A stretch of 59,051 nt of DNA, from NCBI GenBank assembly GCA_012522045.1, contig JAAYLC010000158.1:1-59051 (forward strand), read 5' to 3'. A program made the translations under genes and the position numbers. Each line of letters opens with the position of its first letter. The stretch's first letter is position 1. This DNA comes from Bacteroidota bacterium (GTDB lineage Bacteria > Bacteroidota > Bacteroidia > Flavobacteriales > Flavobacteriaceae). Below the pieces are notes generated by a model. It had not been told where the DNA came from and did not search any database. It worked only from the letters and a program-made list of their open reading frames with translations. Shown piece by piece: positions 29,963-58,423 of this stretch.

Positions 29963-30200
29963 TTAATAGTTGCGCTTATGAGCGCTTGTATTAATTAATC
30001 GCATATGTGGTGATAACAAGGTTTATTTCCCGATGCAAAATGTAATGCACTATTGATTATCAATTAATTAGACGTTAATAGATACAAATAAGCAACAAAA
30101 AGTGTTGAATTATAGCTAATTAAGGACTAAAGATAGGAAGAACAGGAGAGCTTTTAACTGCCAAAAGCTTCACAAATATTTTATTACGGAAATAATAATA
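29963..30200. other. AT-rich stretch without a gene
   Basis: No convincing reading frame. It contains a hairpin GCGCT/AGCGC near 29972-29985 and a 7-bp inverted repeat AGCTTTT/AAAAGCT (30149-30155, 30163-30169) upstream of the copper-block promoter, which could be an operator. Confidence 0.4.
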
Positions 30201-35768: not shown

Positions 35769-35796
35769 AACCAAGTTTAATTTAAAATTTATAACA

Positions 35797-36390: not shown

Positions 36391-36407
36391 GAAATTAATC
36401 TGCAAGG

Positions 36408-36434
36408 TGCTCCCCCGTGCATTAGCGGGGGGCT
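36408..36434. other. GC-rich hairpin between the DUF3347 and haem-binding-domain genes
   Basis: GCTCCCCCG (36409-36417) pairs with CGGGGGGC (36426-36433) around an 8-base loop, a very strong stem in AT-rich DNA. There is no T-run after it, so it looks more like an mRNA-stability or processing hairpin than a terminator. Confidence 0.6.
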
Positions 36435-36458
36435 TGTAGCTTTAATAAAAATAATTTA

Positions 36459-36914: not shown

Positions 36915-36917
36915 AGT

Positions 36918-36971
36918 CCTGATTGAGGAGGAAAGTTGTAGGGTAAAATAGGTATCCCTCCTCAGGTCAGG
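36918..36971. other. Inverted repeat after the haem-binding-domain gene
   Basis: CCTGA pairs with TCAGG and TGAGGAGG with CCTCCTCA around a loop of about 25 bases, starting four bases after the stop codon. It may end or stabilise the cus transcript; there is no T-run. Confidence 0.5.
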
Positions 36972-37118
36972 CACTATTAAAATTAGACATTAGTTTTAAT
37001 TTAACTATAATAGAACATGGCAGATTAATTAAAAATATTATTCAGCATAGTTTTAAAAGTATTATAAATAGCAGAACAAATCATATAAAAAAGACAACGA
37101 TAACGCTTTATATATAAA

Positions 37119-37958: not shown

Positions 37959-38111
37959 AATTCAGTTTTAAAGGTGTAAGAATTTCTGATATTAATCACA
38001 GCCTTTAACCATAAAAAAAGAAGGTGAAAATATGACAACTGTATAGATGTGAAAGAAAAGGACTTCAAAGCACTAAAAGAAGATGAGAGTTTAATATTAA
38101 ACGACAAAAAA

Positions 38112-40127: not shown

Positions 40128-40131
40128 TATT

Positions 40132-40626
40132 ATGAAAAAAGACAAAATGAACCACGACAAAAAAAACAATGATAATTATACGCGATTTTTCTTAATGCTG
40201 GGAGGGTCATTTATCGCAATGTACATTACAATGTATTTGAACACTTATGCAATCGACCACGTCTATTTTAGCCTTACCCGCTTTTATATGACCTGTTTGG
40301 GCATTGCTGCAATGGCCGTTATAATGCTGTCCCTGATGCTCAAAATGTACAGGAACAAAAAGAAAAACATTGCGATTTATGTGGGCAGTTTGGTATTATT
40401 TATAAGCGCTCTTGGCTTGGTAAGGGCTCAAGCCCCCATTGTTGACGATGTTCTGTATATGAGAGCTATGATACCGCATCACTCCATTGCGATTCTAACC
40501 AGTAAAAGAGCTGATATAAAGGATCCGGAAGTAAGAAAGTTAGCGGATGATATTATTGAAGCTCAGGAAAGGGAAATCGCTGAAATGAAAAAGTATATCA
40601 AGCGTTTGGAAAATAAGATACAATAG
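40132..40626 (+). CDS. DUF305 membrane protein of the copper block
   Basis: A 164-residue protein with three membrane helices in the first half (MLGGSFIAMYITMYL; YMTCLGIAAMAVIMLSLML; IYVGSLVLFISALGLV) and a soluble DUF305 end containing MRAMIPHHSIAILTSKRA. The MIPHH motif with neighbouring Met is the conserved core of DUF305, a ferritin-like helical fold linked to copper resistance. It probably handles copper at the outer face of the membrane. It follows copB by four bases. Confidence 0.88.
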   Translation: MKKDKMNHDKKNNDNYTRFFLMLGGSFIAMYITMYLNTYAIDHVYFSLTRFYMTCLGIAAMAVIMLSLMLKMYRNKKKNIAIYVGSLVLFISALGLVRAQAPIVDDVLYMRAMIPHHSIAILTSKRADIKDPEVRKLADDIIEAQEREIAEMKKYIKRLENKIQ

Positions 40627-40743
40627 TTTGTATAAAATAAATAACACAAATTAATCCCAAGTACAACGAGGTCGCGGTAAAAAGCTCGAAAAGTTTCTGA
40701 AACTATTGGAATTTGGGAAGGGTTTAAAATCAATATTATAACA

Positions 40744-42606: not shown

Positions 42607-43248
42607 TTAAGCAACTGTTACAGAACCTAAATAAGAGCTATTCGCTACTTTAGAGCCATCTTCTGAGATAAACCCTAAGAATACCTCAACATCTTCACCA
42701 GTGTACTCTGAAGGCACGGAAATACTTTCTGTACTGGCTGATCTATCTGGACCAGCTGTAGTAAATACACATTCCCCTCTTGTAGCGTTGAAAAGCAAAA
42801 TCAATGCTTTATCAGTAGCTAAGGCACTACCACTTCCAGAATTATCTGTCCAGGTAACATCTACTGTTGCAGCACTTGGGGAAGTAGCCACTCCACCAAC
42901 TGCACCTGTAAGATTTCCACGAGTCACTAAAGCATTAGCGTAATCAATGGTATAGTTAGGGTAAGCCCCTGTAATACCATTGTTTAAGTTGTAAGACATT
43001 GCAGCATTAAACTGTGTCATCTTGTTAGCATACAATTTGAAACCAACACGCAAGAAGTCTGTCATTGGTTGCAAGAAGCGAAGCACGGTTGAAAACTTTG
43101 AGCGTTGGTCAACTTGTCCTTCGGTTCTTGGGTTCGCTACACTGGAAGGTTTAATTCTTAGGTAATCAATGCCCTTCCAAGACGCACCGATTACATTCCC
43201 TACTTGGCCTGATACGCCACCGAGAATACCTTGATTAATTTTTCCCAT
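42607..43248 (-). CDS. DUF6266 family protein
   Basis: A 213-residue protein starting MGKINQGILGGVSGQVGNVI, the typical N-terminus of DUF6266, followed by GASWKGIDYLRIKP and a C-terminal half that looks like an immunoglobulin-like beta sandwich (TVDVTWTDNSGSG; KALILLFNATRGE). The family occurs in Bacteroidota mobile elements and resembles phage or injection-apparatus structural parts, but no function is established. I chose the ATG at 43248; the frame is open 45 bases further upstream. Confidence 0.85.
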   Translation of the reverse strand: MGKINQGILGGVSGQVGNVIGASWKGIDYLRIKPSSVANPRTEGQVDQRSKFSTVLRFLQPMTDFLRVGFKLYANKMTQFNAAMSYNLNNGITGAYPNYTIDYANALVTRGNLTGAVGGVATSPSAATVDVTWTDNSGSGSALATDKALILLFNATRGECVFTTAGPDRSASTESISVPSEYTGEDVEVFLGFISEDGSKVANSSYLGSVTVA

Positions 43249-43425: not shown

Positions 43426-43860
43426 TCAAACTGCACCTGTTTTATTCATCAACTTATAGAAGATTGCCTTTTTGGCGGTATCAATCATTTTTAATGAAAG
43501 CTTGAGTTTTTCTTCATTAATTTCTAAGAGTTTTAAGTGGTGAATTGACTGGTGAAATAACTGCGGATGTTTACTTGCAATACATTCACTATCTCGAAGG
43601 TGCTTTTTAATATCTCCAATCGTTATAAATGGAATTACAGAACCTTTTAGATAGTAATGGAATGATTTAGATTTCCATAATCCGAAGCAAAGCCAATACA
43701 TAAAATCCTTATCGGTTTCATTGGTCGTGATGCAGACAAAGCAATTCGGACAAGGTTTATTTAGTGGTTTTCCACTATTCAATCCTTTATTTAGGATAAA
43801 GAAATGAGGTTCGGAATAATTCTGTTGTAATCGGTGGGTTTTGATACGAAACGTTTTCAT
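43426..43860 (-). CDS. DUF6943-like protein of integrative elements
   Basis: A 144-residue protein starting MKTFRIKTHRLQQNYSEPHF. It contains KPCPNCFVCI, a possible metal site with a later Cys in YWLCFGLW, then a helical basic C-terminus. It matches my recollection of DUF6943, a family of unknown function carried by Bacteroidota conjugative elements. It lies next to DUF6266 and excisionase-like genes, which fits such an element. Start at 43860 rather than 43872 on the basis of the conserved beginning. Confidence 0.75.
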   Translation of the reverse strand: MKTFRIKTHRLQQNYSEPHFFILNKGLNSGKPLNKPCPNCFVCITTNETDKDFMYWLCFGLWKSKSFHYYLKGSVIPFITIGDIKKHLRDSECIASKHPQLFHQSIHHLKLLEINEEKLKLSLKMIDTAKKAIFYKLMNKTGAV

Positions 43861-43983
43861 ATAGTGAGTCATTTAAATTATGCTCGCTACGCTTCGCTAA
43901 TATTTTTTCAAAAGAGAAAAGAAAAAAAAAGAAAAAAAGAAAAGAGAAAGCTTTTGAAAAGGCGGGTAAGGCACGGTTGTCAA

Positions 43984-44103
43984 GGTTTTTGGTGAAAATA
44001 CTATCCAGCCAGAGGCGGATGGAGATTTTCATCAAAACCCGTAGGGCTTGACCTTTACAATCCGTATGTGCGGTGGAATTGTGCGAACCCGCCTAACTTT
44101 GCT
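43984..44103. repeat. Structured duplicated element, copy 1
   Basis: Bases 44033-44103 recur exactly at 44756-44826 (71 bases). Directly before it a long hairpin spans 43984-44039: TGAAAAT/ATTTTCA extended by TTTT/AAAA and GG/CC, then a conserved internal loop ACT/GGAG, then ATCC-A-GCC/GGC-GGAT with an AGA loop. Copy 2 keeps the same shape with different paired bases. No gene explains it. Confidence 0.8.
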
Positions 44104-44136
44104 TTCGTCTTTTTATTTTTATTTGAAAAAATCGGA

Positions 44137-44427
44137 TTAATGTCTTAAAATATTATCTGAAAGGAGTTCCACCAACTCCTTTTTATTGTAATATCGGCGA
44201 CCACCCATTCCGTAACAATTTATCTTTTTATTTTTTGTCCAACGCCAAAGAGTACCCCTGCTAATTTTTAAAAACTCTGCTGTTTCTTTCGGGGATAGAA
44301 AAACATCTTCTTCAGAAGATTTATAATCCGCTAAATACATTTTAAGTTTATTAAATAATTTTTCTGCTATAATGTCGGTAAGTTCGTTAACAGATATTTC
44401 TGTAATTTCAATTGTTTTCGTTATCAT
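44137..44427 (-). CDS. Helix-turn-helix excisionase-like DNA-binding protein
   Basis: A 96-residue protein. The N-terminal half is helical (NELTDIIAEKLFNKLKMYL) and the C-terminal half is a MerR/excisionase-type winged helix: FLSPKETAEFLKISRGTLWRWTKNKKINCYGMGGRRYYNK in two parts, with the wing at GGRRYY. Such proteins control excision or transfer in Bacteroidota conjugative transposons. It lies between the two copies of the structured repeat, which could contain its targets. No integrase is visible nearby. Confidence 0.85.
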   Translation of the reverse strand: MITKTIEITEISVNELTDIIAEKLFNKLKMYLADYKSSEEDVFLSPKETAEFLKISRGTLWRWTKNKKINCYGMGGRRYYNKKELVELLSDNILRH

Positions 44428-44720: not shown

Positions 44721-44826
44721 AAAAAAAATACTACCCGCAGGGTGGAGATTTTTTTCAAAACCCGTAGGGCTTGACCTTTACAATCCGTATGTGCGGTGGA
44801 ATTGTGCGAACCCGCCTAACTTTGCT
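44721..44826. repeat. Structured duplicated element, copy 2
   Basis: Bases 44756-44826 equal 44033-44103. The preceding hairpin has AAAAAAAT/ATTTTTTT, the same ACT/GGAG internal loop and ACCC/GGGT around GCA. The stems differ from copy 1 (TGAAAAT/ATTTTCA; ATCC/GGAT) but still pair, a compensatory pattern. Confidence 0.8.
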
Positions 44827-44837
44827 ATTCTCATTTT

Positions 44838-44868
44838 TTTGAATATTCTAATTTTATTTATACTTTTG
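44838..44868 (+). promoter_or_regulatory. Promoter upstream of the 44934 gene
   Basis: TTTG at 44838-44841 and TACTTTTG at 44861-44868 are 19 bases apart, immediately after repeat copy 2. Transcription would start near 44875. Confidence 0.65.
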
Positions 44869-45934: not shown

Positions 45935-46001
45935 TAAACGGATAAATCATAATACTTATTAAGACGGTAAGCGTGTGTAAACGCAGGTAAACAAGCGTAG
46001 C

Positions 46002-46052
46002 TATAGCGGAAGCACGGAATGGAGAGTAACGGAATGGAGTGCTGGAGCTATA
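46002..46052. other. Two-helix hairpin with GGA/GGA internal loop
   Basis: TATAGC (46002-46007) pairs with GCTATA (46047-46052) and AGCAC (46011-46015) with GTGCT (46039-46043), separated by a symmetrical GGA/GGA internal loop and capped by 23 bases. The layout copies that of modules A to C but with different stem sequence. Confidence 0.65.
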
Positions 46053-46110
46053 ATGCGAGCCGCCTGCGAGCGGAGCAAGGGTGGTGGCTGCAGAAGCCCG
46101 AAGAATGAGG

Positions 46111-46153
46111 GCGGCAGACGCCTACGGTTTACCGCAGGGCTGGCGGGTCTTTT
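46111..46153 (+). terminator. Terminator-like hairpin inside the non-coding region
   Basis: AGAC...GCC pairs with GGC...GTCT around an inner CGGT/ACCG hairpin and is followed by five T. If the region is transcribed rightward, an RNA could end here. Confidence 0.4.
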
Positions 46154-46319
46154 TGCTTCAGCGTTGGGAAAGGCAAGGGTAGCGTTTGAACGCAACGAAA
46201 CGATGCCGGAGCCGTAATGGAGCAATACCTGAGTGCTATAAATATTATGGATTTACATTTCGTTTATATTATCCAAGATGAATCTTAGGAATCAAAATCG
46301 TATTGCGTAATGAAGGTAC

Positions 46320-46430
46320 GTAGGCTCGTGTAGTGAAGAGAATGAGCTACTCTTGCGCGCGTTGCCGAAAGTGGCTGAGTTGAGGGAAGGAGGCACGATT
46401 GAGCGAAATGAAGCGACTGTAGGCAAATGG
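46320..46430. repeat. Structured module A (divergent copy)
   Basis: A hairpin GTAG-CTC/GAG-CTAC (46320-46350) is followed by the main stem: TTGCC (46362-46366)/GGCAA (46422-46426), GAA/GTA loop, AGTGGCT (46370-46376)/AGCGACT (46412-46418) and a 35-base cap. It is a diverged relative of B and C with compensated changes. Confidence 0.7.
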
Positions 46431-46880
46431 GATTGCAAAAATCGTGACAGCCCGATCAGCCCGCAGCGACCCGCAGGCTCGCACAATTAACAAGTGGCGG
46501 CAGACCCCCAATTAAAAAAGTGGTGAGCGGAGCGAACACCTTATTGGGGTTTGCGGTGCGCAACGTTGGCTGCGGCTCAGCAAAGCTTCAGCGAGCTGAG
46601 CTTTGCGTTCGCCTTGCGCACCGTTTGGGGGGATGGAGTAGCCACGGGTGAGGAAGGAGAGTAGCGTGTGAAGCAAAACAAGTGAACGGCAGGTGGCGAG
46701 CACCCACTGGAGCGCAAGGCACCTGGTAAGTGAACGGTATATGCAAGGGCGACCGCAGGGAGTTCATTTTACCCTTGCAGATATGTTTTTGCGGAACAAA
46801 GCGGAACGACTGACGAACACCGCTTTACCTGCGTTTGGATGCGCGTGGGAAAAAGCAAGGGTGCGACTGATTGAGGTGGA

Positions 46881-47012
46881 GAGTAACGGAACCGATTGAA
46901 GGAGTACTCTTGCTGCGCGTTGCTGGAAGTGGGTGATTGTAGAGAGTGAGGCACGAACGAACGAAAAGAACCGACTGGAAGCAAATGGCTGTGCGGTGGG
47001 TTTTTTTCCTTA
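46881..47012. repeat. Structured module B, left boundary repeat of the zinc block
   Basis: Bases 46905-47012 match 58316-58423 at 105 of 108 positions by eye, same orientation. Folding: GAGTA/TACTC (46881/46905), then TTGCT (46920-46924)/AGCAA (46980-46984), GGA/GGA loop, AGTGGGT (46928-46934)/ACCGACT (46970-46976), 35-base cap, and a T-run at the end. Confidence 0.85.
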
Positions 47013-47268
47013 AATTGGAATCATCTAATTCCGCTATAGAAGGAATAAGGTTAGCTTTAGTGGTGAGGAAATTAGGGTCAGTATATTAAGCACAATAATA
47101 CAATATGATTTGTGATGTCAAAATCAAACTGGAAGTTCAACCAATGGTTCAATAATTAATGATAATGCAATTAATGGTTCATAAGAAAAAGCAGAAACGG
47201 CAATGGCTAATGAAATAGGTGAATTTCTTGCCGTAGTAGTTAATGTCAGGCTTACCCTGTCTGAATAG
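47013..47268. other. Gene debris or empty stretch
   Basis: No intact gene. A plus-strand frame with an internal stop contains NGSIINDNAINGS, then AMANEIGEFLAVVVNVRL, which could be decayed coding sequence. I recognise no family. Confidence 0.3.
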
Positions 47269-47473: not shown

Positions 47474-49378
47474 TTATAAATCCTTCCGTTGTATTCTCAC
47501 AGCATTCAATATAGCCAAAAGAGCTACACCCACATCTGCGATAACGGCTTCCCATAAAGTAGCAACACCGCCTGCACCTAATGCAAGTACTATAATTTTG
47601 ACTGTCATAGCGAGAATGATATTTTGCCAGACAATGTTTTTGGTGATTTTACCCGCCTTTATTGCTGCAACGATCTTTGACGGCTGGTCGTTTTGAATAA
47701 CTACATCTGCTGTTTCGATGGTGGCATCACTACCGAGACCGCCCATTGCAATACCAACATCGGCGAGGGCAATAACCGGAGCATCGTTAACACCATCGCC
47801 TACAAAGGCCAATTTTACTCCTTCTTTTTTAAGAGCCTCCACTTTCTCCACTTTTTCATCCGGAAGCAGTCCACCATAAGCTTCATCAATTCCCAAAACT
47901 TTTGCCACCTGATCTACCACTGTTTGTTTATCACCAGATAACATTACGGTTTTTATGTTTAGACGGTGCATTTCCTTGATGGCCTGATATGCATCTTCCT
48001 TTATTTCATCGGCAATAGTGATATAACCGGCGTACTTATTATCAATGGACAATACCACTATGGTATCTACAATCTGTTCGACTTCGGCAGGATAAGCTAT
48101 GTCATATTTCTTTAAAAGTTTAAGGTTTCCAGCCAATACTTCCTTATTACCAACGATGCCTTTCAAGCCGTGTCCTGCTATTTCTTCAATGTTTGAAGTT
48201 TGTAGGCCTTGGTGTTTATTATCGGCATAATCCGTTACAGCTATGGCTATGGGATGGGTCGAGTTCTTTTCCAAAGCTGCTGCTACTTTGATCAGTTCTT
48301 CTTTTTCAATTCCTTCGGATACTACTTGCTGAACTTTAAAGACCCCTTTGGTCAAGGTGCCTGTTTTGTCCATCACCACTGTTTTTACTTGGGTCATAAC
48401 ATCCAAATAGTTTCCGCCTTTGAACAGGATTCCATTTCGGGAAGCAAGGCCGATACCTCCAAAGTAGCCCAGAGGTATGGAAACAACCAATGCACAGGGA
48501 CAACTGATCACCAAGAATACCAATGCACGATAAAACCATTCCCGAAACACATAATCATCCACAAAAAATATTGGGGTTACACAAAGTGCCAGTGCAAGGA
48601 AAAATACGATTGGGGTATATACTTTGGCAAAACGGGATATGAAGAGTTGGGTCTGTGATTTACGTGCGGTGGCATCCTGTACCATTTCCAAGATCTTGCT
48701 GAGTTTACTATCCCTAAACAGGGCGGTTACCTTTACTTCTGCAAGTGTGTTTTGATTGATCATCCCGGCCAGTACCTGTTCACCTTTATATTTGGTATCT
48801 GGTTTGCTCTCCCCTGTTAATGCCGCAGTGTTGAAAGAGGCTTTTTCAGAAATGAGATCACCATCCAAGGCAACCTTTTCACCAGGTTTCACTTGTATCT
48901 TTTCTCCTATTTCTACTTCTGAAGGATGTATAACCTGTGATTTTCCGTTTCTTAGAACGATAACTTCATCAGGCCTTATATCAAGCAAGGCTTTAATGCT
49001 TCTTTTGGCGCGCTTAACTGCCGAGTCCTGAAACCATTCGCCTATTTGGTAAAATACCATTACGGCAACACCTTCTTCATATTCTCCAATGATGAATGCG
49101 CCGATTGTTGCCACACTCATCAATACAAATTCATTGAAGAAATCGCCTCTTTTTGACTTTCGCCAAGCGAGATCTAAAACTTTTCTTCCGGCGAGAAGAT
49201 AAGCAATGAGGTTAATTGCCAATAAAGGTATAGTGGGTATGGCGAGGTTAAACCCATATTCCAATGTTAACAGTATAACCAAAATCAGCAAGGCAAGCAG
49301 AAGGTCCCAGTGGGTTTTCCAGCCTGTTTTTTCTTTATTAACTTTTGGGCTTAAGGGCCGGGATGTAGCTGCTTTCAT
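47474..49378 (-). CDS. Zn/Cd/Pb-type P-type ATPase without an HMA domain
   Basis: A 634-residue P1B-type metal pump. The membrane metal site is CPC in VISCPCALVVSIPLG, the phosphorylation site DKTGTLT, the A-domain TGES and hinge GDGVNDAPVIALADVGIAMGG. The last helix has IADVGVALLAILNAVR, whose Asp matches the zinc-contact Asp of ZntA, so zinc, cadmium or lead export is most likely. It lacks the N-terminal Cys-based metal-binding domain that most ZntA/CadA proteins have. It lies at the distal end of the czc-like operon. Confidence 0.93.
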   Translation of the reverse strand: MKAATSRPLSPKVNKEKTGWKTHWDLLLALLILVILLTLEYGFNLAIPTIPLLAINLIAYLLAGRKVLDLAWRKSKRGDFFNEFVLMSVATIGAFIIGEYEEGVAVMVFYQIGEWFQDSAVKRAKRSIKALLDIRPDEVIVLRNGKSQVIHPSEVEIGEKIQVKPGEKVALDGDLISEKASFNTAALTGESKPDTKYKGEQVLAGMINQNTLAEVKVTALFRDSKLSKILEMVQDATARKSQTQLFISRFAKVYTPIVFFLALALCVTPIFFVDDYVFREWFYRALVFLVISCPCALVVSIPLGYFGGIGLASRNGILFKGGNYLDVMTQVKTVVMDKTGTLTKGVFKVQQVVSEGIEKEELIKVAAALEKNSTHPIAIAVTDYADNKHQGLQTSNIEEIAGHGLKGIVGNKEVLAGNLKLLKKYDIAYPAEVEQIVDTIVVLSIDNKYAGYITIADEIKEDAYQAIKEMHRLNIKTVMLSGDKQTVVDQVAKVLGIDEAYGGLLPDEKVEKVEALKKEGVKLAFVGDGVNDAPVIALADVGIAMGGLGSDATIETADVVIQNDQPSKIVAAIKAGKITKNIVWQNIILAMTVKIIVLALGAGGVATLWEAVIADVGVALLAILNAVRIQRKDL

Positions 49379-49437
49379 TTTATTAAAATTTTCTTTAAAG
49401 ATACTTTAAAAGGTTATGCACAGGAATTGCATTTGCA

Positions 49438-49647
49438 TCAGCATTCATCTTTTCTTGTTAACTGGATAGGAGGACAGGGCAAAGAACCATAAGAACAGTA
49501 AACGCAACAGTCACCTTCTTTTGGTTTTAGAACAGTTTTACACTTCTCGCATTCATAAAAGAATTGACAGGAATTTGTTGGCATATCTTCTACTTTTTTG
49601 TGTCCGCAGTTTGGACAGGTAATTTCTGATTTTAATATAGCTTCCAT
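49438..49647 (-). CDS. Small GDCCVYCSYG-type zinc-ribbon protein
   Basis: A 69-residue protein with eleven Cys: CPNCGHKK near 11-18, CQFFYECEKC near 27-36, and the signature GDCCVYCSYGSLPCPPIQ near 45-62. The first two Cys pairs should form a zinc ribbon; the last cluster could bind another metal ion. This small family is common beside metal-efflux genes in environmental bacteria, but its role is unknown. It lies 59 bases upstream of the Zn/Cd ATPase in the same direction. Confidence 0.85.
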   Translation of the reverse strand: MEAILKSEITCPNCGHKKVEDMPTNSCQFFYECEKCKTVLKPKEGDCCVYCSYGSLPCPPIQLTRKDEC

Positions 49648-49698
49648 TGATTTTTATTTTTTCTTGTTACCTTGTAATTTGTTGCATTAATTGCTTCC

Positions 49699-49812
49699 TC
49701 AATTTTCACCTTCATTCGTTTTAGTATCGTCAAACTCAATGATCGCGTTACCATTTTCGTAAGGATTTAGGTTATCCAGTTCGGTTTTAAAATCTTCAAA
49801 CATCCAGTCCAT
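49699..49812 (-). CDS. Possible 37-residue acidic peptide
   Basis: A short frame beginning MDWMFEDFKTELDNLN and ending TKTNEGEN. It is strongly acidic with no membrane segment. It starts nine bases after the APC permease stop and points the same way as the operon, which supports it as real, but nothing in the sequence suggests a function. Confidence 0.45.
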   Translation of the reverse strand: MDWMFEDFKTELDNLNPYENGNAIIEFDDTKTNEGEN

Positions 49813-49821
49813 AACATTAGA

Positions 49822-51138
49822 TTAATGGTTAAAAAGCTCCTTTTCTTTTTCAGGGTCTATTTCATCTTTTGACTTTTTGTCCAAAAAATAATCCAAGATA
49901 ATGCCTACTGCAATAGCTCCCACAAATGCTGTATATACTTCCCAATCATATTGAATTACCAAGGACAAACTAATGAGTATCGCCAATATGGGCAATACTG
50001 GAACTTTTCCAATGGATAAAGGAACTTTGAATGGTCTTTCTTTATTGGGTGCTTTGAAACGCAATACGATAAGTGCAATGTTCACGGCAACAAAAACAAG
50101 CAATGCACCCAAAGATGACATTCCCGCTACGATTTTGATATCTCCCAACAATATAAATCCAGGAACTGCTACCATAACTACAAGGGTAGTTGCCCACGGA
50201 ACTTTCTGTGCATTGGTTTTGGTCATAAATTTTGGTAGTTCGCCCACGCTTGCCATTCCAAAAAGCAACCTGCTAATAGAAATTATACCACTAAAAGCCG
50301 CATTGGCAGTGGCGAAAAGTGCTGCTACGGCCAAGGCAACGGGCAACCAACTGTTGAGGTTGGATGCCGCAAGTGAAAGTGGCGAATCCACTTTTGCCAG
50401 TTCTGACGGGTCGGCAATGTTGAGTACCGTAAAAGATATGAGCAAATAGATGACGGTTGTAAAAACCATTGTCAATAGAAAGGCACGAGGAATTGTCTTG
50501 CCAGGGTTTTTTACCTCTGAACCCAAAGCCGCCATATGTTCAAAGCCAGTATAAACAAAAAACAAGGTAGCCGTTGCTGCCAAAGTACCGGAAAAGGATT
50601 CAACTTTAAAAAATGCTGCTTTTGGTGGGCCTGTTTCCAAAAGTCCGAACGCTATAAGAAGGAACAATCCCAAGAGCTGAATACTAACCATAATGATATT
50701 AGCGGTAGATGATTTCTTGATGCCCGTAATGCTTATCAACGAGAGCATAACCAAAACACCATAACTGACAAGTAGGGAAGGAATACTAAAAAAAGTGTTG
50801 AAATAGCCTGAAAAAGCCAGTAGCACCGCAGCGATGGTGGCCGAACTGTGGAACGCAATCGTCCAGCCCGTGAGAAAAGACGGAATATCAATTTTAGGAA
50901 ACGCCTTGCGTACAAAAATAAATTCCGCACCCGCATTCGGATAGGTTGAGGATAATTCAGCATAAGACATTGCCGACACACTTGCCGCAATAGCCGCAAA
51001 AATAAAACTCAACCAAAGGTCTGTTCCAGCTTGACCAGCTGCGGCACCAATTACCGTGTATATTCCTGCGCCCACAATAGTACCTACACCGTAAAAAGTG
51101 AGGCGAAGGGTTCCCAATGATTTTTTTAGTTCAGCCAT
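49822..51138 (-). CDS. APC-superfamily permease
   Basis: A 438-residue membrane protein with about twelve helices and the APC start KSLGTLRLTFYGVGTIVGAG, where the broken first helix (GVGTIVGAG) binds substrate. The consensus GFEHMAALGSEVKNPGKTIP follows helix 6. It most resembles amino-acid permeases of the CAT/YfnA type. Its place between a Fur-family regulator and metal-export genes suggests uptake of a metal-binding amino acid or a metal-linked solute, but this is a guess. It starts 12 bases after the fur-like gene. Confidence 0.88.
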   Translation of the reverse strand: MAELKKSLGTLRLTFYGVGTIVGAGIYTVIGAAAGQAGTDLWLSFIFAAIAASVSAMSYAELSSTYPNAGAEFIFVRKAFPKIDIPSFLTGWTIAFHSSATIAAVLLAFSGYFNTFFSIPSLLVSYGVLVMLSLISITGIKKSSTANIIMVSIQLLGLFLLIAFGLLETGPPKAAFFKVESFSGTLAATATLFFVYTGFEHMAALGSEVKNPGKTIPRAFLLTMVFTTVIYLLISFTVLNIADPSELAKVDSPLSLAASNLNSWLPVALAVAALFATANAAFSGIISISRLLFGMASVGELPKFMTKTNAQKVPWATTLVVMVAVPGFILLGDIKIVAGMSSLGALLVFVAVNIALIVLRFKAPNKERPFKVPLSIGKVPVLPILAILISLSLVIQYDWEVYTAFVGAIAVGIILDYFLDKKSKDEIDPEKEKELFNH

Positions 51139-51150
51139 AATACTGTTCTT

Positions 51151-51576
51151 TTAATTTCTGGAATGGCCGCTGCATTTTTCGCAAATACCTTTTACTACTA
51201 AGTTGATATCCTCCGTGATATAACCATCGGGTAAGTTGATATGAGGGATTTTATGCTCTGTTAAACAGACCGTTTCATTACAATTGTTGCAACGAAAGTG
51301 TAAATGAAGGTCGTTGCCGACCTCGCACTCACAATTTTCTTCGCAAAGAGCGTATTTTATGACTCCTGTACCGTCCTCAATTTGATGCACAACACCTTTT
51401 TTTTCTAAGGTTTTCATAGTTCTAAATAGGGTACTTCTTTCACTGACCTTAAAATCCTTTTCCAAATCGCCAAGGCTGATGGCCACATTCAACTCTGCCA
51501 ACCGCTTATAGGTCAAAAGGCGCATTGCAGTAGGCCTTATTCCTTTGCTTTCTAAAAATTGAACTATTTTTTCCAT
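51151..51576 (-). CDS. Fur-family metal-responsive repressor
   Basis: A 141-residue regulator. The winged helix occupies residues 1-80 (RPTAMRLLTYKRLAEL; SERSTLFRTMKTLEKKG). The C-terminal dimer domain has HLHFRCNNCNETVCL and ICEKCSGH, giving a CxxC...CxxC structural zinc site. Overall it fits Zur or a related Fur-type sensor. It is inside the zinc-type efflux operon, so it may regulate that operon by zinc level. No obvious palindromic box is visible just upstream. It starts 16 bases after the PII-like gene. Confidence 0.9.
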   Translation of the reverse strand: MEKIVQFLESKGIRPTAMRLLTYKRLAELNVAISLGDLEKDFKVSERSTLFRTMKTLEKKGVVHQIEDGTGVIKYALCEENCECEVGNDLHLHFRCNNCNETVCLTEHKIPHINLPDGYITEDINLVVKGICEKCSGHSRN

Positions 51577-51592
51577 TTGTTTATAAATTGAT

Positions 51593-51931
51593 TTACAGGT
51601 CGAAACGTTTTAAGGATTCCCCCGTTTTAATGTGAAAGGCATCCTCAATATTTGCGATATAAATAATCCCGTCTCCTGGTTCTTCCGTTTTACCATTTCT
51701 TAGAATTGTTTCAATTGCGGCTTGGGCTTCCTCATTTTGACAAACCAGTTCCAGCTTGACCACCGGACTATCTGTCACGTGAAAATCCAGCGACGGTCTT
51801 GCGCCTTTTGCCTTGAACGCCCCCGTGCCTTCTGCCTGTGAAAGTGTCATACTTTTAAAACCACTATCAGCAAGAGCTTCAATTACCCTTTGGATCCGGT
51901 TCGGTTTTATAAATGCTTTTATTTCCTTCAT
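51593..51931 (-). CDS. PII-like protein of metal-efflux operons
   Basis: A 112-residue ferredoxin-like protein of the PII superfamily. The start KEIKAFIKPNRIQRVIEAL and the end GDGIIYIANIEDAFHIKTGE match PII. The T-loop is altered (GTGAFKAKGARPSLDFHV), without the Tyr that is uridylylated in GlnB/GlnK. This is the pattern of the PII-NG group found next to RND metal pumps. It probably senses nucleotide or metal and acts on a membrane partner such as the pump or the APC permease, not on nitrogen metabolism. Confidence 0.85.
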   Translation of the reverse strand: MKEIKAFIKPNRIQRVIEALADSGFKSMTLSQAEGTGAFKAKGARPSLDFHVTDSPVVKLELVCQNEEAQAAIETILRNGKTEEPGDGIIYIANIEDAFHIKTGESLKRFDL

Positions 51932-52039
51932 TTTTTTAAATTTTTAATCGATTTTGAACCGAGCCTGTTTTTTTAATTTTTAACTAACTTATTAAGACGA
52001 TAAACAAACCCGGAATCAAAATCTTTGATGGTGATTGAA

Positions 52040-53248
52040 TTAATGTGCGTGTTCCAGTTCGCCTTTAACCATTTCCGAAGACAGGTTATAAGCTCCACTT
52101 ATGACAACTTTGGCATCCTTTGAAACTTCGGCAGGAAGATTGACTTCAACAAAGCCTAAATCAGTAATACCAACCGTTACGGGTATCATTTTGAATTTCA
52201 TTTTGCCCGCTTCCATTTCTTCGTCTTCATCCAAAATGAAAATGAAGGATTGCTCGCCTTCTTTTATGATAGCAGCTTCAGGAATAGCGAAACCTTTTTT
52301 CTCGCCCTGCACTATGCGCCCTTCCACATACATTCCCGGCAATAGGTTTTTATCCTTGTTTTCAATATCCGCCAAGACTTCCAAAGCCTTTGGGTCGGTG
52401 TTAAAGGTTTTACCAACAGACCGAACGGTGGCTTTAAGCAAATTGTCCGGGTGGGAGGCCGTGGAAAAATATATCTGTTGTCCTTTCTGGATTTGCTTTA
52501 TGTCCTTTTCATAGACTTTGAAGTTTACATAAATTTTTGAATTATCGCTTATCGAGAACATTTTGGATTGTTGTGCCACGTAATCGCCAAGGCTAATCAT
52601 TACTTCATCCACATAACCACTTATGGGTGTGGTAATGGGAACTGCGGAATATATCTGTCCTTCCGCCACTTTGTCGGGATTAATGCCCAACAGTTTCAAT
52701 TGGGAACGCAACCCATTGACACTGGATGTGGTGGAACGAAATTTTGACTGCGCCATCTGAAATTCCTTGCCAGAAGAAACACCTTTGTCATAAAGGGTCT
52801 TTTTGCGCTCAAAATCCTGTTTCAAAAAGACCAGTTCGTCATTTTTTTCCTGATATTCCTGTTGCATTGCTATGATATCGGGATGCTCAATATATGCCAA
52901 TACCTGTCCTTTACTTACATTATCTCCAGGTACTACCTTTATGGAACTCACATTTCCACCAACAAACGGACTGATGTTCGCCTTATCCTGTGGAAAAAGT
53001 TCCAGCGTTCCTGTTACCTTAATGTTGTTTCCTAAAGTTCGTTCCTCCAGAGTTTTCGTTTTTAAACCGATGTTTTCGGCCTGTTGCTTTGTAAGCACTA
53101 CAACTCCTTCTTCCTCGTCGTGGCCTTCGCCGTGCGCATCTTCCCCAACCTCCGCTTCGTTATGCCCGAGTTCAGATTTTGGGGCATCGTTACAACTCAT
53201 AAACATAAGTGTAAACAATACGGTACTTATTACTAATATATTCTTCAT
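52040..53248 (-). CDS. czcB: CzcB-type adaptor of the zinc-block RND pump
   Basis: A 402-residue periplasmic membrane-fusion lipoprotein. The ATG at 53248 places the lipoprotein signal directly at the start (VLFTLMFMSC). An Asp/Glu/His-rich stretch follows (GEDAHGEGHDEEEG), probably a metal-binding tail. The body holds beta-barrel and lipoyl segments (VVPGDNVSKGQVLAYIEHPD) and a long alpha-hairpin with MAQSKFRSTTSSVNGLRSQL. It starts 16 bases after the czcA-czcC fusion gene ends, so the three pump parts come from one transcript. Confidence 0.92.
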   Translation of the reverse strand: MKNILVISTVLFTLMFMSCNDAPKSELGHNEAEVGEDAHGEGHDEEEGVVVLTKQQAENIGLKTKTLEERTLGNNIKVTGTLELFPQDKANISPFVGGNVSSIKVVPGDNVSKGQVLAYIEHPDIIAMQQEYQEKNDELVFLKQDFERKKTLYDKGVSSGKEFQMAQSKFRSTTSSVNGLRSQLKLLGINPDKVAEGQIYSAVPITTPISGYVDEVMISLGDYVAQQSKMFSISDNSKIYVNFKVYEKDIKQIQKGQQIYFSTASHPDNLLKATVRSVGKTFNTDPKALEVLADIENKDKNLLPGMYVEGRIVQGEKKGFAIPEAAIIKEGEQSFIFILDEDEEMEAGKMKFKMIPVTVGITDLGFVEVNLPAEVSKDAKVVISGAYNLSSEMVKGELEHAH

Positions 53249-53264
53249 TTTTCCTTTTTTTTGA

Positions 53265-56200
53265 TTATAAATTGCCCAGTTGGTATCGTATCTCAATCGT
53301 CTGCTGGTTAAACTGGTTTATGTATTGCAAATGGTTTTGTTTTATCCTGATGGCACTGTTGAGAATTGTGATATAATTGACATAATCTATTTCGCCTTCC
53401 TTGGATGCCAATTGCGCTGTGGTAATTTGCTGTTCTGCCAACAATAGTGCGCCTTCTTCGTAATATTGCAAAATCTTCTTTGTTTTTTCAAGGGATTGGA
53501 GCAATTGCGAAACACGGCTTTCCGTAACTTCTTTTTGTTCCAAATATTGATATTCTGCCATCATTGCGTCTGCCTTAGCTGACTTGACTCTTGCCTTTTG
53601 CGGAAAAAACCATAGTGGAATGCTAATGCCTGCCTGAAAAGTATTGAAGCCTGACACTTCATCTACAACTTGTCTGCCATACGATAAACTAAATTTAGGT
53701 AGAAATTGGGATTTTTCGACACCCACGTTTGCCTTGCTTACTTCGGCATTTTGCAAGGCATATTGCAACATTGGATTATTTGCCACTGAAGTTGAATCTA
53801 ATGTAGCCATAAAATCCAATGGCTCGTAAACGCCATCAACCGTCTCGATGTTTTCATCGGTTCCCAAATATTGCTTTAAGGCACGTTTGGCGATTTCAAT
53901 ATCATCGAAAGCTTGTTGTTTTAATACTTGTATCTGCTGAAATTCGGAAGAGGCTGCAATAAACTCCAACTTGCCTGTTTCTCCGGTATCATACCGAAGT
54001 TGGGCAGCGGTCTTAAAATTGGCATAAACACTGTCCAATTGATCAGCAAAACGCAACTGTGCCTTGTAATAATTAATTTGGTCATACGCCTGCATCACAT
54101 TACGCACCAACTGTTGTTCACTTGCCACAAAAAACTTTTCTCCCAATGCAATGCGCTCTTTGTAAAACTTCGATTTTGAAAACCCGGAAAGCAAATCAAT
54201 ATTTCCCTGTTGTACGCCGATAGTGGTTTGAACTCCAGGAAGATTATTGCCATATTCTTCCTTGCCTGTAAAAACTTCGGTGCTGCCAAGGTCAAAACTG
54301 GTGCCTTTCATCGCCTTTTCCCGTTCAATAAATGCCTGACTTTCCTTGAGCGTAGGATAATTCTGTTTTGCCATAGCAATGGCCTCATCAACGGTCAAGG
54401 TCTTTGGAATTGTACCATCTTGATTGGTGTTTTGGGCAAATGAAGTACCAGATGCCATCAAACCTCCAACCATCAATAATACTGTTATAATGTTGGTTGA
54501 CCTGTTGACATAGCTTACACCTCTATCGGTATTGTTTCGTTCCTTTCTCGATTCCAGCCAATAGTAAAGAATAGGAATAACCACCAAGGTCAAAAATGTT
54601 GCCGTAAGCATTCCTCCAATGACTACTGTTGCCAATGGTCGCTGTACTTCTGCACCACCAGAGGTGGAAACCGCCATTGGGATAAAGCCCATAATTGTGG
54701 TAATGGCAGTCAATAAAATGGGACGTAAACGTTCGTGCGTAGCTTCGTATATACGTTTTTTTAAATCTGTCATTCCACTTTCTTTTAGTTCATTGAATTT
54801 GTTTATGAGTATCAGACCGTTTAAAACCGCTACTCCAAAGAGTACGATAAACCCGACCCCTGCCGAAATACTGAAAGGCATTCCACGGATCAACAAAATG
54901 AAAACCCCGCCTATTGCCGCCAAAGGCACTGCCATATAAATCATCAAAGCCTGTGAAAATGAATTTAAAGCGAAATAAAGCAGGATAAATATTGTTAGTA
55001 GAACGATGGGCACTACTATCATCAATCGGTCTGATGCACGTTGCAGGTTTTCAAATGATCCTCCATAAGTGACGTAATAACCTGGTGGCAGTTCCACTTC
55101 CGTTTCCAGTTTTTGCTGAATTTCCTCGACCATCGATTTTACATCGCGTCCACGAACATTTACACCCACAGATATACGACGCATAGTGTTGTCTCTTGAA
55201 ATTTGCATTGGCCCAGCTTTATAACTGATATCCGCAACTTCCTTTAGAGGCACTTGAGCACCGTTCGGCAGGTCTATGTAAAGGTTTTTTAAGCTATTGA
55301 TGTCTTGCCTAAAGTCCTCTGCCAACCTGATAACCACATCAAAACGCTTTTCGCCTTCAAAAATCACACCTGCCTTTTCGCCTGCAAAGGCGGCACTTAC
55401 ATAATCATTCAATTTATCCACGGTTACACCGTATTGTGCCATTTTTGCGCGGTTATACACCACTGTCATTTGTGGCAAACCGCTTGTAGCCTCTACGTTA
55501 AGGTCTGCTGCACCCGGTACTTCACGTATTACCGCTGCGATTTCCTGTACCTTGTCTGCCAAAACGCCTAAATCTTCTCCGTACAGTTTGATTGCCACGT
55601 CCTCACGGACTCCAGTTAGCAACTCATTAAAACGAAGTTCCACCGGCTGGGTAAATACAAAGTTGACACCGGGAACAACCGAAATCTTTTCTTGTATTTT
55701 TTCAATGAGTTCTTCTTTGCTGTCGGCGGAAGTCCATTTGCTTTTATCTTTTTCAAGAATAATGTAACTATCCGCAATGTCCATTGGCATCGGGTCGGTT
55801 GGGATTTCGGCTACCCCGATTCTTGAAACTACAGTTTTAACTTCAGGAAATTCATTTATTAGATTTTCAAGTTTCTTTGAAGCCTCGATGGTCTCTGTAA
55901 GACTACTCCCCGGTTTTATTAATGCTTGAAAGGCAATATCGCCTTCATCAAATTTTGGGATAAATTCAGCCCCCATATTGCTGAATACAAATCCTGCAAT
56001 CAATAGCAAGGCAACCGCGCCTATTACGACCCCTGCTTTAAAACGAAGTGCAAAATTCAGTATGGGCAGATAAACGCGATTCAAAAGGCTCATAATTTTA
56101 TCGCTTATCCTATCCATCCGATTTTCAAATCTGGCAAACCAACTATTTTGGTTTTTGGCAGGTTTTAAAAATAATGACGACATCACTGGCACGTAGGTAA

Positions 56201-57680
56201 GACAAAGGATGATAGCGCCTAAAACCGCAAAACCAAAGGTGAACGCCATTGGTCGGAACATTTTCCCTTCCACACCAGTTAAAAACAGGATAGGTGTAAA
56301 AACAATAAGAACAATTAGTTGACCGAAAAAGGCAGAATTCATCATTTTACTTGAAGAATCATAGGCTATTTCATCCATCTCGGATTGTCCCATAATTGCA
56401 TTGGATTTCTTCATCCGTTGATGAATGTGAAAAACCGTTCCCTCCACTATAATTACCGCGCCGTCAACAATAATTCCAAAATCAATTGCACCCAAGGACA
56501 TTAAATTTGCCCAAATACCAAATTGCTTCATCAAAATAAATGCGAACAATAAACACAAGGGGATTATCGAAGCTGCTATCAAACCACCACGGAAGCTACC
56601 TAAAAGGAGTACCAAAACGAATATTACGATGAGTGCCCCTTCAATTAGATTTGTTTTAACGGTACTTGTGGTTCTCTCAATCAGTTCGCTTTGGCTTAAA
56701 AATGTATCGATATACACGCCTTCAGGCAAGGATTTTTGGATTTCGACTATACGCTTTTCAACATTTTCTATAACGTTACTTGGGTTCTGTCCTTTCAACA
56801 TTAATATTTGGCCACCCACAGATTCGTGACCATCCTGGGTAAATGCACCATAACGCACTTGGTTACCGTAACCCACTTTTTCGGCAACGTCCCTTACGAA
56901 AACAGGGCTTCCATTTTGAGTGGTCACAACGGTGTTTTCCAAATCGGCGATACTTCGTGCCAGCCCTTCCCCACGGATAAAATTGGCTTGGTGGTTTTTT
57001 TCAATATAAGCTCCACCCGTATTGGCATTGTTCACTTTAAGGGCTTCAAAGACCTGGTGCATTGTGATGCCAAAACTTTTTAGTTTAGCAGGATTAAGAG
57101 CGACTTCATATTGTTTTACATAGCCTCCAAAAGCATTTACTTCAACAACTCCCGGGACTAACGCCATCTGGCGTTTCACGATCCAGTCTTGAATGGTGCG
57201 CAGTTCCATTGCGTCATATTTTTCTTCGTACCCTTCTTTAACCTTTAAGGTATATTGCAATATTTCGCCCAAGCCCGTGGTAATGGGCGCCATAAAAGGC
57301 GTGCCAAAACCTTCAGGGATTTCTTCCGCAACTGCGGTTAATTTTTCTTGGACCAATTGTCGTGGCAGATAGGTTCCTGCTTCGTCTTTAAAAACAATGG
57401 TTACCACGGACAGTCCAAAACGAGAGATCGAACGCAGTTCGATAACGTCTGGAAGATTTGCCATTGCCAATTCTACGGGAAAGGTAACAAATTGCTCAAT
57501 ATCCTCCGTTCCCAAATTAGGGGCAGTTGTTATAACTTGAACTTGATTGTTGGTAATATCAGGCACGGAACCCAAATTTATAGTGGCCATTGAGTATATG
57601 CCTGTGCCAATAAGCACCACTATAAATAGCCCAATAATAAATTTATTATTAATGGAAAATGAAATGATTTTATTAATCAT
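53265..57680 (-). CDS. czcA: CzcA-type RND pump fused to a TolC/CzcC-type channel
   Basis: A 1471-residue fusion. Residues 1 to about 1040 form a heavy-metal RND pump with GSVPDITNNQVQVIT at the start, the proton-relay helix AIDFGIIVDGAVIIVE (the acidic DFGxxxDGAVVxxE of the Czc branch), and a final EVQRPLATVVIGGM. After a link with NNTDRGVSYVNRS comes a signal-peptide-like helix (ITVLLMVGGLMASGTSFAQ at about 1056-1074) and then a complete TolC-family channel of about 400 residues. Such fusions occur in other Bacteroidota. A signal-peptidase cut at the internal signal would release the channel for the outer membrane. Substrates are likely zinc, cadmium or cobalt. Confidence 0.92.
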   Translation of the reverse strand: MINKIISFSINNKFIIGLFIVVLIGTGIYSMATINLGSVPDITNNQVQVITTAPNLGTEDIEQFVTFPVELAMANLPDVIELRSISRFGLSVVTIVFKDEAGTYLPRQLVQEKLTAVAEEIPEGFGTPFMAPITTGLGEILQYTLKVKEGYEEKYDAMELRTIQDWIVKRQMALVPGVVEVNAFGGYVKQYEVALNPAKLKSFGITMHQVFEALKVNNANTGGAYIEKNHQANFIRGEGLARSIADLENTVVTTQNGSPVFVRDVAEKVGYGNQVRYGAFTQDGHESVGGQILMLKGQNPSNVIENVEKRIVEIQKSLPEGVYIDTFLSQSELIERTTSTVKTNLIEGALIVIFVLVLLLGSFRGGLIAASIIPLCLLFAFILMKQFGIWANLMSLGAIDFGIIVDGAVIIVEGTVFHIHQRMKKSNAIMGQSEMDEIAYDSSSKMMNSAFFGQLIVLIVFTPILFLTGVEGKMFRPMAFTFGFAVLGAIILCLTYVPVMSSLFLKPAKNQNSWFARFENRMDRISDKIMSLLNRVYLPILNFALRFKAGVVIGAVALLLIAGFVFSNMGAEFIPKFDEGDIAFQALIKPGSSLTETIEASKKLENLINEFPEVKTVVSRIGVAEIPTDPMPMDIADSYIILEKDKSKWTSADSKEELIEKIQEKISVVPGVNFVFTQPVELRFNELLTGVREDVAIKLYGEDLGVLADKVQEIAAVIREVPGAADLNVEATSGLPQMTVVYNRAKMAQYGVTVDKLNDYVSAAFAGEKAGVIFEGEKRFDVVIRLAEDFRQDINSLKNLYIDLPNGAQVPLKEVADISYKAGPMQISRDNTMRRISVGVNVRGRDVKSMVEEIQQKLETEVELPPGYYVTYGGSFENLQRASDRLMIVVPIVLLTIFILLYFALNSFSQALMIYMAVPLAAIGGVFILLIRGMPFSISAGVGFIVLFGVAVLNGLILINKFNELKESGMTDLKKRIYEATHERLRPILLTAITTIMGFIPMAVSTSGGAEVQRPLATVVIGGMLTATFLTLVVIPILYYWLESRKERNNTDRGVSYVNRSTNIITVLLMVGGLMASGTSFAQNTNQDGTIPKTLTVDEAIAMAKQNYPTLKESQAFIEREKAMKGTSFDLGSTEVFTGKEEYGNNLPGVQTTIGVQQGNIDLLSGFSKSKFYKERIALGEKFFVASEQQLVRNVMQAYDQINYYKAQLRFADQLDSVYANFKTAAQLRYDTGETGKLEFIAASSEFQQIQVLKQQAFDDIEIAKRALKQYLGTDENIETVDGVYEPLDFMATLDSTSVANNPMLQYALQNAEVSKANVGVEKSQFLPKFSLSYGRQVVDEVSGFNTFQAGISIPLWFFPQKARVKSAKADAMMAEYQYLEQKEVTESRVSQLLQSLEKTKKILQYYEEGALLLAEQQITTAQLASKEGEIDYVNYITILNSAIRIKQNHLQYINQFNQQTIEIRYQLGNL

Positions 57681-57768
57681 AAATATGTATTAATTCAGTT
57701 AAAAATTTACGGTGCGAATGGGTGCAACGCATTTATAAAGCAATGCTTACTTTGAGAAGCATCACGTT

Positions 57769-57784
57769 AGGATATAGCTATCCT
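57769..57784. other. Short hairpin between the HYC_CC_PP-like gene and czcA
   Basis: AGGATA and TATCCT pair around TAGC in the 118-base gap. No T-run follows on the minus strand, so it is not a clear terminator and the downstream pump genes can be read through. Confidence 0.45.
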
Positions 57785-57798
57785 TAAAAAAAACTGAA

Positions 57799-58194
57799 TT
57801 ATACTCGCGGGGGTTGGAAGAGAGATTCCAGATATCTGGAATAGAAGTTAACTGTATATAAATTGAACGGCTCTTTATCTTCAAACTTTAGTCGATTGAT
57901 TAGGGCCGAATTGTTGTTCGCAATAAATAATACTAAAGGATGACAACATTGATTATGAGAATGAACTGGTGTATTTTCCTTATCTGGGTTATTATGATGC
58001 CCTTCATTTTTTGCATCATTGTCAATGTAATCTTCAATTACATATTCAAGGAAAGAGTCGCCATAAATTTTATGGTTTTGATAATGGGTAATGATATTTG
58101 AGATATCTTTTATTGGCCCACAAAAATCCATATCAAGGCTAATTCCCTGAAAAAAGAATAAAATTGACATTGATATGGAAAAGAATATTTTCAT
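57799..58194 (-). CDS. HYC_CC_PP-like small envelope protein of the zinc block
   Basis: A 131-residue protein with a signal-like start (IFFSISMSILFFFQGISL), MDFCG in the position of MHFCG in the copper-block relative, a His-rich stretch with HHNN and VHSHNQCCHP, and a C-terminal LFQPPRV. The Cys pair, the preceding His residues and the final PP match the HYC_CC_PP pattern. It is the first gene of the zinc-type operon, as the homologue at 30249 is of the copper block. Metal binding is likely from the residues; the function is unknown. The start is set by the -7 box eight bases upstream. Confidence 0.75.
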   Translation of the reverse strand: MKIFFSISMSILFFFQGISLDMDFCGPIKDISNIITHYQNHKIYGDSFLEYVIEDYIDNDAKNEGHHNNPDKENTPVHSHNQCCHPLVLFIANNNSALINRLKFEDKEPFNLYTVNFYSRYLESLFQPPRV

Positions 58195-58202
58195 AATTTC
58201 TA

Positions 58203-58210
58203 CAAATGTA
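58203..58210 (-). promoter_or_regulatory. -7 promoter element of the zinc-type operon
   Basis: TACATTTG on the minus strand, eight bases before the ATG at 58194. The same octamer stands six bases before the copper-block gene. The -33 region is unclear (CAAA on the plus strand at 58225-58228 is too close). Confidence 0.55.
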
Positions 58211-58288
58211 CAAATAATTACGTGCAAAGGTTGTGCAATTATAATGATACTCAGGAGTTGAAATAGCAAGTGTGGCCCTGAATGAATT

Positions 58289-58423
58289 GTAGTGCAACGG
58301 AAATGAATGGTGGGCTACTCTTGCTGCGCGTTGCTGGAAGTGGGTGATTGTAGAGAGTGAGGCACGAACGAACGAAAAGAACCGACTGGAAGCAAGTGGC
58401 TGTGCGGTGGGGTTTCTTCCTTA
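58289..58423. repeat. Structured module C, right boundary repeat of the zinc block
   Basis: Bases 58316-58423 match module B (46905-47012) at 105 of 108 positions. Folding: GTAGT/GCTAC (58289/58314), TTGCT (58331-58335)/AGCAA (58391-58395), GGA/GGA loop, AGTGGGT/ACCGACT. The identity ends exactly at the stop codon of the minus-strand SRAP gene. Confidence 0.85.

What the first reader, a model, noticed from the sequence alone, without database searches (positions are those of the whole stretch)
46320..47012. Non-coding module family with compensatory base changes: candidate new structured RNA or ssDNA element
Modules A (46362-46426), B (46920-46984) and C (58331-58395) all read helix, 3x3 internal loop, helix, 35-base cap. 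Outer helix: TTGCC/GGCAA in A, TTGCT/AGCAA in B and C. Inner helix: AGTGGCT/AGCGACT in A, AGTGGGT/ACCGACT in B and C. Two positions change on both sides and keep pairing, and the cap length is identical. The hairpin at 46002-46052 (TATAGC-GGA-AGCAC / GTGCT-GGA-GCTATA) repeats the same plan with unrelated stems. This is what a conserved fold under selection looks like. Seen in sequence: the repeats and pairings. Inferred: function as RNA, transfer origin or recombination site.
Basis: seen in the sequence. Interest (0 to 1): 0.85.

Follow-up and report, generated by a model that had tools for sequence, protein, structure and literature searches.

The report
Large structured RNA in mobile element
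The three hairpin modules are pieces of a roughly 1,000-base conserved folded element, most likely a large non-coding RNA, that matches no Rfam family and sits as a fixed part of a family of integrating gene islands that carry defence and metal-resistance genes between marine Bacteroidota.

Summary
The modules are real, but they are parts of something larger. Window 45971-47012 (+) is a ~1 kb non-coding element closed by a long-range terminal helix (45971-45991 with 46824-46844). BLAST finds it in 39 of 397 same-family genomes; an exact motif of its 3' end occurs at 111 places in GTDB species genomes, mostly Flavobacteriaceae, Cyclobacteriaceae and relatives (a few are chance hits). The fold is strongly supported: in 45 sequences of the 3' core 98% of pair cells pair and 17 of 27 pairs change on both sides, far above shuffled and slid controls. 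G-U cells far outnumber A-C cells, so + is the folded strand. No Rfam family matches. The element is a core part of integrative elements: attL, DUF6266, DUF6943, HTH_17, RNA, cargo, tyrosine integrase, attR at the mnmE 3' end. The window holds the left end (30023); contig C65 of the same genome starts in a matching integrase. In other genomes the same slot holds an unrelated structured element ('type 2') sharing the loop GAGGYACGA. Transcription and function are untested; I favour a trans-acting structural RNA, comparable in role to GOLLD/ROOL.

The parts
45971..47012 (+). Whole structured element (type 1): core plus 3' module, no ORF of 80 aa or more inside
   Evidence: Collinear homologues; sharp ends at about -3 and +165; ORF list
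45971..45991 (+). 5' strand of terminal helix, pairs with 46824-46844
   Evidence: Inverted repeat, coordinates; 5'/3' ends pair in 32 elements with an A-T/T-A swap at the ninth pair
46824..46844 (+). 3' strand of terminal helix
46002..46052 (+). Peripheral hairpin with GGA/GGA internal loop; absent, short or long in other members
   Evidence: z -4.4; variants; covariation 0.455 vs 0.171
46055..46068 (+). Conserved GCGAGCC block, predicted to pair with 46470-46482 (GGCTCGC)
   Evidence: Alignment and RNAalifold, coordinates
46362..46426 (+). Module A, in the variable middle domain; duplicate of module B
46638..46832 (+). Conserved 3' core domain used for alignment A4 and model R1
46852..47001 (+). 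3' module: hairpin AGCAAG...CTTGCT followed by module B (46920-46984)
58265..58411 (+). Module C: stand-alone copy of the 3' module beyond the cargo
46390..46398 (+). GAGGCACGA loop motif in module A (also 46948-46956 and 58359-58367)
30023..30040 (+). attL core (mnmE 3' end-like) at the left end of the integrative element
   Evidence: 16/18 to att core; next 60 nt closely match the left end in G338
42607..43248 (-). DUF6266 gene, left-terminal conserved gene of the elements
   Evidence: Pfam PF19781; linkage
43426..43872 (-). DUF6943 gene
   Evidence: Pfam PF22105; linkage
44137..44427 (-). HTH_17 excisionase-like gene
   Evidence: Pfam, phage excisionase family match
47474..58269 (-). Metal-efflux cargo (P-type ATPase, permease, HlyD, AcrB-type and others) between module B and module C
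   Evidence: Pfam

Best explanation
Window 45971-47012 encodes, on the + strand, a large structured non-coding RNA of a family not in Rfam. Its ends are held by a terminal helix, its 5' and 3' domains are conserved, and its middle and peripheral hairpins vary. The gene is a core component of a family of tyrosine-recombinase integrative elements in Bacteroidota that insert at the 3' end of mnmE, and in some hosts probably elsewhere. It lies between the element's conserved left end (attL, DUF6266, DUF6943, HTH_17) and its exchangeable defence or metal cargo. Most likely mechanism (inferred): the RNA is made when the element is active and folds into a compact particle through its GA-rich internal loops and GAGGYACGA loops, perhaps with element proteins. 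It then acts in trans for the element (maintenance, induction or transfer), as is supposed for the phage RNAs GOLLD and ROOL. Because it is nearly invariant next to changing cargo, it also serves as a homology block through which cargo is exchanged. Shown by sequence: fold, strand, family, element membership, cargo exchange. Inferred: transcription, particle formation and trans function.
For: Covariation in three independent parts, with G-U 359 against A-C 55 cells over the whole element. Peripheral arms vary in length and type while the core is kept. No Rfam match. Present in dozens of species of several families, with near-identical copies across families. Linked to DUF6266, the 251-aa protein set or DUF6943 in 38 of 38 named loci with both ends and at least 3.5 kb of left flank (my count). 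Integrase 12-27 kb to the right in 8 of 12 genomes; att pairs at mnmE and beside DUF6266 in 6 of 6 checked; att beside DUF6266 in 23 of 39 loci against 0.4% of shuffles; window attL and own-genome integrase contig. A second structured element type in the same slot, which suggests that the slot itself needs a structured RNA. Crossovers inside the element with cargo exchange.
Against: No transcript data. No convincing promoter upstream of the 5' end. No homology to any RNA of known function. The role as a particle or trans-acting RNA rests on analogy. A folded DNA strand would show the same pairing and the same strand bias.
Confidence: 0.62

Rival explanations
1. It is a DNA element: one strand folds as ssDNA and serves as a recombination, transfer or replication site (attC-, oriT- or ssDNA-origin-like), and gene cassettes join at its ends.
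For: Cargo abuts the element ends closely: one left gene stops right at the 5' end, and several start 22-45 nt from it. The terminal inverted repeat resembles element ends. Module copies B and C flank the 11 kb metal cargo. Strand bias would also arise from a folded DNA strand.
Against: The elements' actual attachment sites and integrase lie elsewhere, at mnmE and beside DUF6266. The fold spans 500-1050 nt, far larger than such sites usually are (my knowledge). Peripheral helices come and go as in folded RNAs.
Confidence: 0.15
2. It is a long untranslated or regulatory region that controls the neighbouring cargo or the HTH_17/DUF6943/DUF6266 genes in cis, with no trans role.
For: Several left genes on the minus strand start 22-45 nt from its 5' end, so a promoter may lie at this junction. 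It always lies between left core and cargo.
Against: Neighbours and their orientations vary greatly, and 0.5-1 kb of conserved fold with + as the folded strand is hard to explain by cis control of minus-strand genes.
Confidence: 0.14
3. It is a self-splicing or otherwise self-mobile ribozyme (intron-like) that inserted here.
For: Sharp ends, terminal helix, horizontal spread.
Against: No match to group I or II introns or any ribozyme in Rfam; it lies between genes, in one conserved slot, not within exons.
Confidence: 0.06
4. Chance hairpins in a GC-rich, purine-rich intergenic island.
For: Hairpins of this plan with other loop sequences occur by chance elsewhere in the window.
Against: Covariation against shuffled and slid controls and conservation across families.
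Confidence: 0.01

Closest known systems
GOLLD RNA (PMC12286853)
   [quoted passage not shown] encoded in mobile DNA (phages, prophages), often near tRNAs; function unknown.
   Different: No sequence or covariance-model match; Bacteroidota integrative elements rather than phages; no match in IMG/VR or the phage collection; oligomeric cage untested.
ROOL RNA (PMC12286853)
   Same: Large ornate RNA of phages and prophages without known protein partner.
   Different: No covariance-model match; different hosts and gene context.
OLE RNA
   Same: Large structured bacterial RNA.
   [quoted passage not shown] no covariance-model match.
Integrative islands at mnmE/thdF such as SGI1 (from my own knowledge)
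   Same: Integration at the mnmE 3' end by a tyrosine recombinase; accessory cargo; tens of kilobases.
   Different: Different host phylum and gene content (DUF6266, DUF6943, DUF6617), plus a large structured RNA as a core part.
Integron attC sites (from my own knowledge)
   Same: Imperfect hairpins with internal loops next to gene cassettes.
   Different: Much larger; no integron integrase found next to it; the tyrosine integrase present acts at mnmE.

Membership tests
GOLLD / ROOL / OLE / any Rfam family | Covariance-model match at or above the family's gathering score | tested here: not met
   cmscan of the window: none; three homologous loci at E up to 5: only three weak sub-threshold hits, none of them a large RNA family
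GOLLD / ROOL | Encoded in phages or prophages | tested here: not met
   No DNA match in the phage collection; 3' motif absent from IMG/VR; found in integrative elements instead
GOLLD / ROOL | Homo-oligomeric RNA cage | not testable with these tools
   Needs cryo-EM or similar
Structured non-coding RNA | Compensatory base changes above controls | tested here: met
Structured non-coding RNA | Transcribed from the folded strand | not testable with these tools
   No expression data held; strand bias fits +; promoter search inconclusive
Group I/II intron or known ribozyme | Match to intron/ribozyme models, flanking exons | tested here: not met
   No Rfam match; lies between genes
Tyrosine-recombinase integrative element | Integrase gene and flanking att repeats | tested here: met
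   in the window's own genome attL is in the window and the integrase on another contig
Phage satellite (PICI-like) | Phage-related core genes, helper-phage induction and packaging | tested here: inconclusive
   Only hints: DUF5675 matches a phage family, and a DUF6266 relative lies beside holin-, lysozyme- and spanin-like genes (my reading); induction not testable here

The most novel reading that the evidence does not exclude
Bacteroidota carry a family of integrative elements whose core includes a large ornate RNA drawn from at least two unrelated RNA classes that occupy the same slot and share a recurrent GAGGYACGA loop. The RNA would be a structural particle or helper without which the element does not propagate, and the swap of one RNA class for the other would show that the role, not the sequence, is kept.
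Probability: 0.4. Interest if true: 0.88.

Novelty: new variant of a known kind. Interest (0 to 1): 0.76.

Why it matters
Very few bacterial RNAs of this size and complexity are known, and the function of most (GOLLD, ROOL) is still open. This family is linked to a defined integrative element with identified ends, integrase and culturable hosts (Aequorivita, Bizionia, Lutibacter, Winogradskyella), so function can be tested by deletion and by following excision and transfer. Two different structured elements in the same slot offer a natural comparison. It also points to a route by which defence and metal-resistance genes are exchanged among marine Bacteroidota.

Tried and rejected
Plasmid and phage collections: no DNA match. 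IMG/VR: no match for the 3' motif. Reading the terminal inverted repeats as transposon ends: rejected as the main reading, because the element stays in one slot of a larger island whose own att sites were found. Promoter search upstream of the 5' end: inconclusive. Structure prediction of DUF6266 (pLDDT 58) and of the 251-aa protein (pLDDT 71): only an Ig/C2-like C-terminal sandwich, no functional lead. Covariance-model search at phylum scale used strict prefilters and drew mainly on the same family, so it gives no useful frequency. Literature: nothing on DUF6266, DUF6943 or DUF6617, and nothing that describes this element.

Full report
What was checked. Modules A (46362-46426), B (46920-46984), C (58331-58395) and the 46002-46052 hairpin are present as written and fold as described on the + strand. 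Two details of the finding need correction. The inner stem has a G.G or G.U middle position, and the fifth outer pair is not maintained across homologues.

The unit is larger. A DNA search of 397 same-family genomes with window 45940-47040 found collinear conserved blocks in 39 of them. Aligning the elements showed sharp ends: 5' GCAGGTAA and 3' TTACCTGC, which pair with each other. In the window this helix is 45971-45991 with 46824-46844. Many members continue for another 160-230 nt in a 3' module, which is where module B sits. Many pairs of similar elements in different hosts lose all similarity at about -3 and about +165, so core plus 3' module is the unit. In the window that is 45971 to 47012.

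It is a folded element with + as the folded strand. RNAalifold on 32 elements gave a multi-domain fold with 359 G-U and 55 A-C cells. A 45-sequence alignment of the 3' core gave 98.2% paired cells, 17 of 27 pairs with two-sided changes and covariation 0.421 against 0.179 shuffled; sliding the partner by 1-3 columns dropped it below 0.09. That structure was derived from the same alignment, which favours it on cells paired, but not to this extent on covariation. The module B homologues gave 0.187 against 0.074, and the 46002 hairpin homologues 0.455 against 0.171. Length differences fall in peripheral arms: the 5' arm is absent, a short hairpin, or the long GGA-looped hairpin of the window. No Rfam family matches. 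The strand bias is what an RNA gives; a folded DNA strand could give it too, and no transcript data were available.

Distribution. The motif GACGAACACCNNNTTACCTGC hits 111 stretches in one-per-species GTDB genomes, 80 of them listed. Most are Flavobacteriaceae (Aequorivita, Bizionia, Lutibacter, Winogradskyella, Xanthomarina and others); the rest include Algoriphagus, Marinoscillum, Ekhidna, Marivirga, Gynurincola, Crocinitomicaceae and Saprospiraceae. A few hits lack the rest of the element (for example L109, L120, L121) and L084 is very weak. The locus of Marinoscillum furvescens (L085) is 99% identical to that of Algoriphagus sediminis (L103) over 6 kb including the element, which means recent horizontal transfer.

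Neighbourhood. Left of the element lies DUF6266 (20 of 38 mapped loci) or a 251-aa protein followed by DUF5675 and a small protein. All 38 named loci with both ends and at least 3.5 kb of left flank carry one of these sets or DUF6943 (my count). The cargo on either side changes: defence-like genes (AbiEii, CARF nucleases, type I restriction, a DrmA match, PIN) and metal efflux. Two left sets and two right sets occur in all four combinations. Window and Aequorivita elements share the right half and right cargo at about 99% while the left halves are 86-93% identical, so crossovers fall inside the RNA gene.

The mobile element. Eight of twelve genomes have a tyrosine integrase 12-27 kb to the right of the RNA, beyond the cargo and on the minus strand relative to it. 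Six of these have it next to mnmE (identified by me from its translation), with a 16-18 nt repeat of the mnmE 3' end about 190-220 nt from the DUF6266 stop, so these elements are 17-32 kb and DUF6266 is their left-terminal gene. In the one right end scanned (G053) the genes are two HTH_17 proteins, DUF6617, the integrase (Arm_5, SAM_5, Phage_integrase) and a further HTH_17 protein; genes of the same sizes recur in most of the other five. The att core scores 15/18 or better beside DUF6266 in 23 of 39 loci, against 0.4% of shuffles. In the window the att core lies at 30023 and the following 60 nt match the left end in genome G338 closely. The window's DUF6266 is therefore 12.6 kb from attL, with metal genes between. 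The same genome has a contig (C65) that begins inside an integrase 73% identical to the elements' own; that it is the missing right end is an inference.

A second class. Loci with DUF6266 but no R1 or convincing BLAST match were fetched from 19 genomes. In nearly all the 18 with enough sequence, the same slot holds a 0.5-1.4 kb non-coding gap rich in G over C. In most of them it is a different element that starts GGGNATNAACNCTTAAAAAAATAGG and usually ends TGTGGGG. It is also highly structured: 93% of cells paired in 204 predicted pairs, 53 pairs with two-sided changes, 318 G-U and 30 A-C cells. Both types carry the loop GAGGYACGA: 8 in type 1 against 0.07 expected, 21 in type 2, none in 313 kb of type-1 flanks. 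Members within a type are related, so these counts are not independent; the motif does occupy several different hairpins.

Mechanism and confidence. Shown by sequence: a large structured + strand element, its family, its place in an integrative element, and cargo exchange around it. Inferred: that it is transcribed and acts as a structural, trans-acting RNA for the element, in the manner supposed for GOLLD and ROOL (PMC12286853). The main rival is a DNA-level site. The att sites lying elsewhere and the multi-domain peripheral variation speak against it, but only transcript and mutant data will settle it.

Noticed in passing
Window 44017-44117 and 44740-44840: A second non-coding direct repeat (101 nt, 92% identical) flanks the HTH_17 gene, and similar sequence lies upstream of DUF6943 in other loci (for example L228, L239), so there may be a further structured element.
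   Followed up: partly
L224-L242, slot right of DUF6266/DUF6943: An unrelated G-rich, highly structured element of about 0.6-0.8 kb (type 2) takes the place of the window's RNA; it has its own long helices and the GAGGYACGA loop.
   Followed up: partly
L243 (G180 contig 19), 2587-2856 and 13222-13462: Two complete type 1 elements in direct orientation 10.6 kb apart flank cargo and the 251-aa/DUF5675 genes.
   Followed up: no
L191 (IMG/VR contig, 4.3 kb): A DUF6266 relative is followed by genes that read like holin, lysozyme and spanin and then, in reverse, by genes that read like cas2 and cas1 (identities are my reading, not a database match).
   Followed up: no
L040, L061, L072, L232: tRNA-Ser(TGA) lies in the left flank of several element loci, 160-2000 nt from DUF6266 in L040, L061 and L232, so some elements may use a tRNA as target.
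   Followed up: partly
L068, about 10140-10370 and 17160-17350 (oriented as the RNA): An about 190-nt non-coding repeat (86% identical) ending near ATAACACGTT recurs between genes to the right of the RNA and may mark another cassette-type array.
   Followed up: no
Window 30814-42465 and 47474-57680: Two metal-efflux gene sets on opposite strands lie on either side of the DUF6266-RNA core.
   Followed up: no
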